In this document: positions 20,356 to 22,213 of the stretch, one piece after another
Numbering within the stretch: the stretch's first letter is position 1
Layout of the letters: each line of letters begins with the position of its first letter
From: Myxococcales bacterium
Lineage (GTDB): Bacteria; Myxococcota; UBA727; VGSZ01
Length of the DNA: 42,990 nt
Reading direction: 5' to 3'
Assembly: GCA_023248635.1 (NCBI GenBank)
Contig: JAHFED010000055.1
Span: forward strand, 1 to 42,990
Made by a program: the position numbers and the translations under genes
The notes under the pieces: model-generated
What the model was told of the DNA's origin: nothing
Seen by the model: the letters and a program-made list of their open reading frames with translations, nothing else
Databases searched by the model: none

Positions 20356-20379
20356 ACGACGACCGGGAGTTCATTGGCC

Positions 20380-21033
20380 ATGCTGCGGTTCATGAAGGTC
20401 CTCGCTCGCTGGTCCGTCCTGCCAGCCGTCGTCGTCGTCGCCGTCGGGGGCGCAGCTGTGCAGTCCGCGCTATCGCAGCCACCGGTCGGCTGCCGCACGG
20501 CCATCGCCTACCGCGACAACGTTCCGCTCGAGCAGCAGTTGGGAACCTGGGCCTGGACCCTGCCCTGGCTCGAGCTCAGCTATGACGAGGTCGAAACCTT
20601 CACGGCAACGGGCGGCAACAACAAAAGGGCCGAGCTGATCGAGGCCCTCGCCGAGGCCGACGACGACGCCTGCGAGGTCGATCTCTACTTCTTCGCCCAC
20701 GGCGCCGACTACGTCTCGTGGATCGAGCGAGCACCCCAGGTCCCCCGGCTGCGCCTCGTCTACGACACCGGGGCAGGCGACGCCCGTCAGGGTCCGCGCT
20801 GGATGAAAGCCGGAGCCAGCGCCTTCGTCGGCCACGGCGGCGACAACTTCGCCCCGGTGTTCTTCGCCTTCTTCCTGCCGGCGTGGATCACCGGATCCAA
20901 CGTCGACGACGCCATCGCCAGCGCCAACCGCAAGACCCTGGCCGTGCTCGAGCGACTTGGCATCGACGCCGACGGCCGGTTGTGGCGGGGCACCGAAGCC
21001 ATCGGCTACGGCAACCTCACGCGCACGCGCTGA
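20380..21033 (+). CDS. Membrane-anchored or secreted protein, possibly an inactive caspase-fold hydrolase
   Basis: This protein of about 217 residues has an N-terminal hydrophobic signal/anchor (SVLPAVVVVAVGGAAVQSALS). The body has the outline of a caspase/CHAT-like fold: VDLYFFAHGAD (His at the usual end of a strand), LRLVYDTGAGDARQG where active relatives would carry a catalytic Cys near this turn, then GASAFVGHGGDNFAPVFFAFFLPAW and an IASANRKTLAVLERLG helix. No Cys is present in the TGAG turn, so peptidase activity is doubtful. A TTG at 20374 and ATG at 20392 are other possible starts; GGGAG at 20364-20368 fits the TTG best by spacing. The fold assignment is my inference. Confidence 0.6.
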   Translation: MLRFMKVLARWSVLPAVVVVAVGGAAVQSALSQPPVGCRTAIAYRDNVPLEQQLGTWAWTLPWLELSYDEVETFTATGGNNKRAELIEALAEADDDACEVDLYFFAHGADYVSWIERAPQVPRLRLVYDTGAGDARQGPRWMKAGASAFVGHGGDNFAPVFFAFFLPAWITGSNVDDAIASANRKTLAVLERLGIDADGRLWRGTEAIGYGNLTRTR

Positions 21034-21091: not shown

Positions 21092-21652
21092 ATGAATCCC
21101 CTGCACGATCTCACCCCCGGACGCGGTGCCCCCCGCGTCGTCGACGCCTTCATCGAGATCAACAAGGGCGGTCGCGTGAAATACGAGGTCGACAAGGAGA
21201 GCGGCCTGCTGCGGGCCAGCCGCGTGCTTTATGGCGCCATTCACTATCCAGCGAACTATGGATTCATCCCCCGCACCCTCGACGACGACGGCGACGCCCT
21301 CGACATCCTCGTGTTCGCCCAAGACGACATCCAACCGGGCTGCATCGTTTCGGCGCGGGTGATTGGCGTGATGCCCATGGTCGATCAGGGCGAGACCGAC
21401 GACAAGATCATCGGCGTCATGGTCGGCGATCCTGCCTTCGAGGTGGTGCGTTCCCTCGACGACCTGCTGCCCTTCCGCATGAACGAGATCATGCGTTTCT
21501 TCGGCGACTACAAAGCGCTGGAGGAAAAAGAGGTGCGGGTCGCTGCTCCTCTGGGCACCGACGAAGCCATCCGCGTCGTCGAGAAATGCTGCGCTGCCTA
21601 CGACGCCAAATACGCACCCGCCGCCACCAGCGCGAAGGTCGGACGCGCCTAG
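21092..21652 (+). CDS. ppa: Inorganic pyrophosphatase, family I
   Basis: This soluble enzyme hydrolyses pyrophosphate to phosphate, pulling biosynthetic reactions forward. The 186-residue length is typical of bacterial family I. The signature metal-binding motif D-G-D-x-x-D is present (Asp66, Asp68 and Asp71 in DDDGDALDILV), along with IEINKGGRVKYEVDKESG, YPANYGFIPRTL, and the metal ligands in DDKIIGV further on. The ATG at 21092 gives the expected N-terminus; a longer upstream frame is not coding. Its stop is three bases before the next gene, so ppa and the microcompartment-domain gene form a pair. Confidence 0.95.
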   Translation: MNPLHDLTPGRGAPRVVDAFIEINKGGRVKYEVDKESGLLRASRVLYGAIHYPANYGFIPRTLDDDGDALDILVFAQDDIQPGCIVSARVIGVMPMVDQGETDDKIIGVMVGDPAFEVVRSLDDLLPFRMNEIMRFFGDYKALEEKEVRVAAPLGTDEAIRVVEKCCAAYDAKYAPAATSAKVGRA

Positions 21653-21655
21653 GCG

Positions 21656-22213
21656 ATGCCGCTTTCGGCGCTCCAGGCCCTGGCAGTGATCGAAACCTCC
21701 TCGATCGCCCGCGGCTTCGTCGTGCTCGACGCCGTCGTGAAGAAGGCACCGGTCACAGTGAAGGTGGCGCGACCTGTCTCCCCCGGACGCTTCCTGCTGG
21801 TCTTTGGCGGCGACGTTGCTTCGACCTTGGAGAGCATCGAAGAGGCCCGGAGCATCGCCGGCAGCGACGTCGTCGACGAGCTCTTCTTGTCCGGCGTGCA
21901 CCACGCGCTCTTGCCCGCCATCGACCGGGCCATCGTCGCAGAGCCGGGAGAGGCCATCGGCATCGTCGAGACGTCCACGGTGTCCGCCGCGATCCTGGCC
22001 GCCGACGCCGCCCTCAAAGCCACGGCCGTCGCGGTCTTGCGCCTGCATCTGGCGCTGGGCGTCGGCGGCAAGGGATGGTTCACCCTGGCCGGTCCGCTCG
22101 GCGACGTTGAGGCGGCCCTCGAAGCGGTCAAGCAGACGGCGAAACCCGATCGCCTGATCGCCGTTGAGCTCATCGCCCGACCCCATGCCGAAGTGCGCGG
22201 CTTCCTGAGCTGA
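21656..22213 (+). CDS. Tandem BMC-domain protein (BMC-T type, lone)
   Basis: This 185-residue protein contains two bacterial microcompartment (BMC) domains in a row. The first (~8-90) reads ALAVIETSSIARGFVVLDAV, then VKVARPVSPGRFLLVFGGD, with a linker GVHHALLPAI like the H-x-x-L-L-P-A-I of BMC-T shell proteins. The second (~100-180) reads EAIGIVETSTVSAAILAADA, then GVGGKGWFTLAGPLGDVEAA. BMC-T proteins form pseudohexameric trimers in shell facets and may have central pores or metal sites. No Cys for an iron-sulfur site is present. No other shell gene, pentameric vertex protein or encapsulated enzyme is in the window. It starts three bases after the ppa stop. Confidence 0.85.
   Translation: MPLSALQALAVIETSSIARGFVVLDAVVKKAPVTVKVARPVSPGRFLLVFGGDVASTLESIEEARSIAGSDVVDELFLSGVHHALLPAIDRAIVAEPGEAIGIVETSTVSAAILAADAALKATAVAVLRLHLALGVGGKGWFTLAGPLGDVEAALEAVKQTAKPDRLIAVELIARPHAEVRGFLS

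What the first reader, a model, noticed from the sequence alone, without database searches (positions are those of the whole stretch)
21092..22213. Lone tandem BMC (BMC-T-like) protein coupled to pyrophosphatase
A two-domain microcompartment shell protein starts three bases after ppa, with no other shell, vertex or core enzyme gene nearby. Either it forms shell-like sheets on its own, completes a compartment encoded elsewhere, or has taken a new role linked to pyrophosphate.
Basis: partly seen in the sequence, partly recalled or inferred. Interest (0 to 1): 0.65.

Follow-up and report, generated by a model that had tools for sequence, protein, structure and literature searches.

The report
Microcompartment shell protein with dedicated pyrophosphatase
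The gene makes one facet tile of a bacterial protein organelle whose other parts are scattered over the same genome, and in a few related myxobacteria this tile is always encoded right behind a soluble pyrophosphatase found nowhere else in those genomes.

Summary
In detail: a family I pyrophosphatase gene (ppa, 21092-21652) is followed three bases later by a true tandem BMC protein (21656-22213; Pfam BMC 102.7 bits over two domains). The protein is lone only within the window. The same genome encodes T2-H-P-aldehyde dehydrogenase on one contig, two further pentamer genes (one with a class II aldolase), an EutL-type trimer and EutBC. The shell set matches the Haliangium ochraceum (HO) metabolosome, and the window protein is its BMC-T1 tile. 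In most Myxococcota loci read here T1 directly follows the dehydrogenase. The window gene is therefore a displaced (satellite) T1, not a stand-alone sheet former.

The new part is ppa. In one order, all four genomes with a soluble pyrophosphatase keep it next to T1: in one it lies inside the intact operon (T2-H-P-AldDH-ppa-T1); in three the ppa-T1 pair sits apart from the rest, in different neighbourhoods. The other 12 genomes of the order show none. So ppa looks like a dedicated accessory of this metabolosome. Which PPi-releasing step it serves, and whether it is inside the shell, is not shown; no encapsulation peptide was found.

The parts
21092..21652 (+). ppa: family I soluble inorganic pyrophosphatase (186 aa)
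   Evidence: PF00719 174.4 bits; best solved relatives are pyrophosphatases 4lug/5ls0, E 1e-52; the only PF00719 match in the genome; dN/dS about 0.2 against G002 and G003
21656..22213 (+). BMC-T1: tandem BMC shell protein (185 aa), orthologue of HO-5812 by sequence and locus order
   Evidence: two BMC domains; PDB matches 3pac and 5dih; groups with the order's other T1 proteins
21677..21889 (+). first BMC domain (PF00936)
   Evidence: 51.7 bits, over the curated cut-off
21953..22183 (+). second BMC domain (PF00936)
   Evidence: 60.9 bits, over the curated cut-off
21650..21658 (+). TAG GCG ATG junction: ppa stop, three bases, T1 start; expected to couple their translation (inferred)
   Evidence: also 4 bp or less between the genes in G002 and G005

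Best explanation
The BMC gene encodes BMC-T1, a tandem-domain trimer (pseudohexamer) that tiles the facets of an HO-type metabolosome. The rest of the organelle is encoded elsewhere in the genome: T2, H, P1 and the aldehyde dehydrogenase with an encapsulation-peptide-like N-terminus on contig C5; pentamers on C9 and C64 (with a class II aldolase); an EutL-type trimer on C96; ethanolamine ammonia-lyase (EutBC) on C42. The enzymes inside most likely oxidise acetaldehyde or another short aldehyde to acyl-CoA (inferred from AldDH, EutBC and the aldolase). An ancestor within this order had ppa in the operon between AldDH and T1 (T2-H-P-AldDH-ppa-T1, still seen in G005). In the window's family the ppa-T1 pair came apart from the operon together. 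The pyrophosphatase is therefore a dedicated accessory of this metabolosome, made with T1. It most likely removes the PPi of a step tied to the organelle's carbon or cofactor supply, or provides phosphate there. Shown: gene identities, order, conservation and exclusivity. Inferred: shell incorporation, translational coupling, and the PPi role. Not shown: where the pyrophosphatase sits and which reaction makes the PPi.
For: T1 identity; its C-terminus (RPhaEvRGfL) aligns with HO-5812 (RPvdElRGrL), beyond the end of the PduT alignment. The rest of the compartment matches HO parts: C5 T2 to HO-5816 E 1e-70, C5 P1 to the HO pentamer 5v74 E 1e-32, C5 H to HO-5815 E 3e-41, the best natural protein. 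AldDH (PF00171), aldolase (PF00596), two more pentamers, EutC and the C96 BMC protein confirmed; EutL match E 1e-50; EutB. Locus order: T2-H-P1-AldDH-T1 in G006, G019, G187, G185, G177, G104, G193 and G095 with 16-72 bp between AldDH and T1; T2-H-P1-AldDH-ppa-T1 in G005 with the AldDH stop overlapping the ppa start. ppa-T1 kept in G000, G002, G003. No window gene other than ppa and T1 matches the fetched flanks of G002, G003 or G005. Exclusivity in the order: ppa found only in G000, G002, G003, G005; none in the other 12 genomes; all four also have a membrane pyrophosphatase. The T1 tree groups the order's genomes as the AldDH and T2 trees do, with moderate support. Literature: H, T1 and P suffice for 40 nm HO shells (PMC10853475).
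Against: Only four ppa-T1 pairs were found in 195 genomes of the phylum; G006 (same order) has the same operon without ppa, so ppa is not essential to this type. No clear encapsulation peptide on ppa, and its C-terminal tail is not conserved. No obvious PPi-releasing enzyme lies in any of these loci. The window's genome is a draft, so contig links between the scattered parts are not known.
Confidence: 0.8

Rival explanations
1. ppa is the cell's ordinary soluble pyrophosphatase and merely shares a transcript with T1; the two have no functional link.
For: It is the only family I enzyme in the genome and no family II enzyme was found; its sequence is that of an ordinary pyrophosphatase without a targeting extension.
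Against: All four genomes also carry a membrane pyrophosphatase. In the order ppa is absent wherever it is not beside T1. The pair stays together across different neighbourhoods, and in G005 it is inside the BMC operon. Seven other genomes of the phylum with both genes have them on different contigs, so this is not a general arrangement in the phylum.
Confidence: 0.2
2. The tandem BMC protein has left the organelle and works with ppa alone, for example as a sheet or scaffold for the pyrophosphatase.
For: In the window, G002 and G003 the pair sits apart from the other shell genes.
Against: The C5 main locus of the same genome shows no T1 of its own and T1 has no second copy in the genome. T1 is under purifying selection and keeps both BMC domains. 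In G005 the pair is in the intact operon.
Confidence: 0.05
3. The other BMC contigs are contamination, so the window protein really is an orphan.
For: The assembly has 135 contigs and 2.9% estimated contamination; C5 is only 6.2 kb.
Against: C5 proteins are closest to those of the two other genomes of the same genus and of G003 (68-92% identity), and G003 and G005 carry the same genes and ppa-T1 on one contig.
Confidence: 0.03

Closest known systems
HO-type metabolosome of Haliangium ochraceum (Sutter et al. 2021, PMC8217296), BMC-T1 = HO-5812 (PDB 5dih)
   Same: T1, T2, H and P1 match HO shell proteins of the PDB; three pentamers; an AldDH in the main locus; satellite loci with pentamer plus aldolase and an EutBC/EutL module, both described for HO in that paper.
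   Different: ppa in the operon or beside T1; T1 displaced from the main locus; pentamers and EutL further scattered, as in the FRAG types of the same paper.
PduT (propanediol utilisation shell protein; PDB 3pac)
   Same: Tandem BMC protein, alignable over 174 residues, E 4e-36.
   Different: NCBIfam PduT model 120 bits against a cut-off of 250; Ser at the position where 3pac has Cys (KTICPG versus RPVSPG), so no iron-sulfur site is expected.
Family I inorganic pyrophosphatase (closest solved: 4lug/5ls0)
   Same: Match over nearly the full length, catalytic positions kept in the alignment.
   Different: Genomic position: beside a shell gene; in this order found in no other place.
Satellite BMC loci (Axen et al. 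2014, PMC4207490)
   Same: A locus with PF00936 only, in a genome with another BMC locus.
   Different: Carries an enzyme gene not mentioned for BMC loci in the texts I could read.

Membership tests
BMC-T (tandem BMC shell protein) | two PF00936 domains over the curated cut-off in one chain | tested here: met
   51.7 and 60.9 bits, cut-off 24.5
BMC-T (tandem BMC shell protein) | trimer with a central pore | not testable with these tools
   single-chain prediction with four sequences was of low confidence (pLDDT 39.6) and was not used
HO-type BMC | shell proteins of HO kind (T1, T2, H, P1) | tested here: met
   best or near-best PDB matches are the HO proteins
HO-type BMC | BMC-P triplet | tested here: met
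   three PF03319 genes
HO-type BMC | AldDH in the main locus, of the HO branch | tested here: inconclusive
   PF00171 enzyme present in the main locus with an EP-like N-terminus; its branch relative to the H. ochraceum enzyme was not tested
HO-type BMC | T2-H-P-AldDH-T1 in one locus (as seen in the relatives read here) | tested here: inconclusive
   met in relatives (G006, G019 and others); in the window's genome T1 is elsewhere
PduT | NCBIfam equivalog TIGR02526 score over 250.3 | tested here: not met
   120.1 bits
PduT | pore cysteine for a [4Fe-4S] cluster | tested here: not met
   Ser at that position in the alignment to 3pac; that this Cys binds the cluster is from my own knowledge
Satellite BMC locus | only one kind of shell domain at the locus, and another BMC locus in the genome | tested here: met
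Family I pyrophosphatase | PF00719 over cut-off, catalytic residues kept | tested here: met
   174.4 bits against 23.5; residues checked on the alignment with an E. coli sequence recalled from memory and against 4lug
BMC cargo enzyme | terminal encapsulation peptide on ppa | tested here: not met
   no N-terminal extension, unconserved C-terminal tail; hydrophobic moments do not discriminate

The most novel reading that the evidence does not exclude
The pyrophosphatase is a working part of the organelle, held in the shell or bound to T1, so that PPi hydrolysis inside or at the shell drives a PPi-releasing step or supplies phosphate to the lumen. That would be a kind of metabolosome chemistry not described in the papers I could read.
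Probability: 0.25. Interest if true: 0.65.

Novelty: new variant of a known kind. Interest (0 to 1): 0.45.

Why it matters
The HO shell is a main model system for shell structure and engineering, yet the organelle's own function is called enigmatic (PMC8217296). A soluble enzyme that these bacteria keep only with this organelle is a direct biochemical clue: a model for the HO metabolosome in this order should account for a step that makes or uses pyrophosphate. It also shows that a shell gene can be moved away from its operon while the rest of the compartment stays in the genome, so a lone shell gene on a contig is not evidence of a new role.

Tried and rejected
PduL as a partner that would use the phosphate: only a weak partial match in the window's genome, in a gene with no BMC gene around it. 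A link of ppa to the EutBC module: rejected, since G005 has ppa but no EutB. A different enzyme in the same slot of other genomes: G017 and G176 have short lipoprotein-like reading frames there, no pyrophosphatase. Hydrophobic moments of the termini did not separate likely encapsulation peptides from ppa. Papers linking pyrophosphatase to microcompartments: none found. Supplementary tables of the BMC catalogue could not be read, so an unremarked PF00719 in its HO loci is not excluded.

Full report
Observation. The window is contig C94 of a 6.5 Mb, 135-contig draft genome. The phylum is probably Myxococcota; that name is my inference from relatives titled Deltaproteobacteria and from the make-up of the phylum sample. 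The window holds ppa at 21092-21652 and a 185-residue protein with two BMC domains at 21656-22213, three bases apart. The protein aligns nearly end to end with PduT and with HO-5812. I noticed no other BMC gene when reading the reading frames of the window; the gene upstream (20374-21033) has no Pfam match.

The rest of the compartment is in the same genome. Contig C5 (6.2 kb) carries, in one direction, T2, H, P1 and an aldehyde dehydrogenase with an encapsulation-peptide-like N-terminus. T2 matches HO-5816, H matches HO-5815 and P1 matches the HO pentamer. Two more pentamer genes lie on C9 and C64, the second followed by a class II aldolase. C96 has an EutL-type protein and C42 has EutB and an EutC with an EP-like N-terminus. 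Sutter et al. 2021 describe for HO-type BMCs a pentamer triplet, satellite loci with pentamers and an aldolase, and EutABC/EutL modules. So the window protein is the T1 tile of an HO-type metabolosome, in a satellite locus. In laboratory systems H, T1 and P suffice for HO shells (PMC10853475), so T1 is expected to be a structural tile here too; this step is inferred.

What relatives show. T1 is present at full or nearly full length in 69 of 195 genomes searched in the phylum (my count). In the intact main loci I read, T1 follows the dehydrogenase directly: eight genomes have 16-72 bp between them (G006, G019, G187, G185, G177, G104, G193, G095), and a ninth, G181, has 30 bp but its T2 lies beyond the contig end. 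In G005 the gap is filled by ppa: the AldDH stop and the ppa start overlap (GTGTGATG), and T1 starts right after the ppa stop. In G003 ppa-T1 lies 4.3 kb beyond AldDH, with other genes between. In G002 and in the window's genome the pair is on a different contig from the main locus. No window gene except these two matches the fetched flanks of the pair in G002, G003 or G005, so the pair has been kept while its surroundings changed. In 30 other T1 loci whose flanks were read there is no ppa beside T1 (some of these stretches are cut by contig ends).

ppa is tied to the organelle in this order. A family I pyrophosphatase was found in four genomes of the order, always beside T1, and in none of the other twelve. 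Of those twelve, ten have no BMC-T1 match at all, G006 has the BMC operon without ppa, and G001, a very fragmented assembly, has the main locus but neither ppa nor T1. All four ppa genomes also have a membrane pyrophosphatase, and a family II enzyme was not found in the eight genomes tested. The order's other ppa proteins are 68-79% identical to the window's, and the next in the phylum about 49%. Elsewhere in the phylum, seven genomes (G020, G043, G049, G051, G185, G187, G193) with both T1 and a ppa match have them on different contigs. Both genes are under purifying selection (dN/dS roughly 0.16-0.4 by a simple count). The T1, T2 and AldDH trees all group the order's genomes, as expected for inheritance by descent, though support on the T1 tree is only moderate.

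How it probably works. T1 forms part of the shell; AldDH inside turns an aldehyde into acyl-CoA; EutBC and the class II aldolase are the candidate sources of the aldehyde in this genome. The pyrophosphatase is made with T1 and removes PPi, or supplies phosphate, for a step linked to the organelle. I could not find that step: I recognised no PPi-releasing enzyme in these loci, and ppa bears no recognisable encapsulation peptide. I therefore put the dedicated-accessory reading at about 0.75, and residence in or on the shell at about 0.25.

Fission. On C5 a dispersed repeat overlaps the end of AldDH (84-209), just where T1 or ppa-T1 follows in relatives, and further copies lie upstream of the operon and on C9 and C42. 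A second repeat flanks the EutL gene on C96, with a copy just after eutC on C42, whereas in G003 eutB, eutC and eutL are contiguous. This fits repeat-mediated break-up of the loci but was not tested further; no such repeat lies at 21-22 kb of the window.

Verdict. The 'lone' shell gene is ordinary in the sense that it is a displaced member of a known metabolosome. The pyrophosphatase coupling is real, conserved and, as far as the papers I could read go, not described; it makes this a new variant of the HO type.

Noticed in passing
L009 (contig C5) 84-209 and 4751-4926; L011 6342-6559; L115 13278-13496 and 14887-15100: A dispersed repeat of about 80-220 bp, 80-97% identical, overlaps the stop codon of the BMC aldehyde dehydrogenase, at the place where T1 or ppa-T1 follows in relatives, and recurs upstream of the operon and on other contigs.
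   Followed up: partly
L010 (contig C96) 3411-3641 and 9102-9335; L115 (contig C42) 10893-11039: A second repeat flanks the EutL-type gene (L010 7814-8512) on both sides, and a copy lies just after eutC on another contig; in relative G003 eutB-eutC-eutL are contiguous (L117 6462-9478).
   Followed up: partly
L115 8352-10627 and L010 7814-8512: The genome has ethanolamine ammonia-lyase (EutB, EutC with an EP-like N-terminus) and an EutL-type trimer, but no ethanolamine-type main BMC locus was seen; this looks like the EUT module described for HO-type BMCs.
   Followed up: partly
L009 3319-4536: A DDE transposase gene (Pfam DDE_Tnp_1) lies directly upstream of the BMC operon on contig C5.
   Followed up: no
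window 20374-21033: A 219-residue, probably exported protein without any Pfam match, same strand as ppa and ending 58 bases before it; it may share the transcript.
   Followed up: no
L012 6019-7512: An ACT-domain, malic-enzyme-like protein directly upstream of the pentamer-aldolase satellite pair on contig C64.
   Followed up: no
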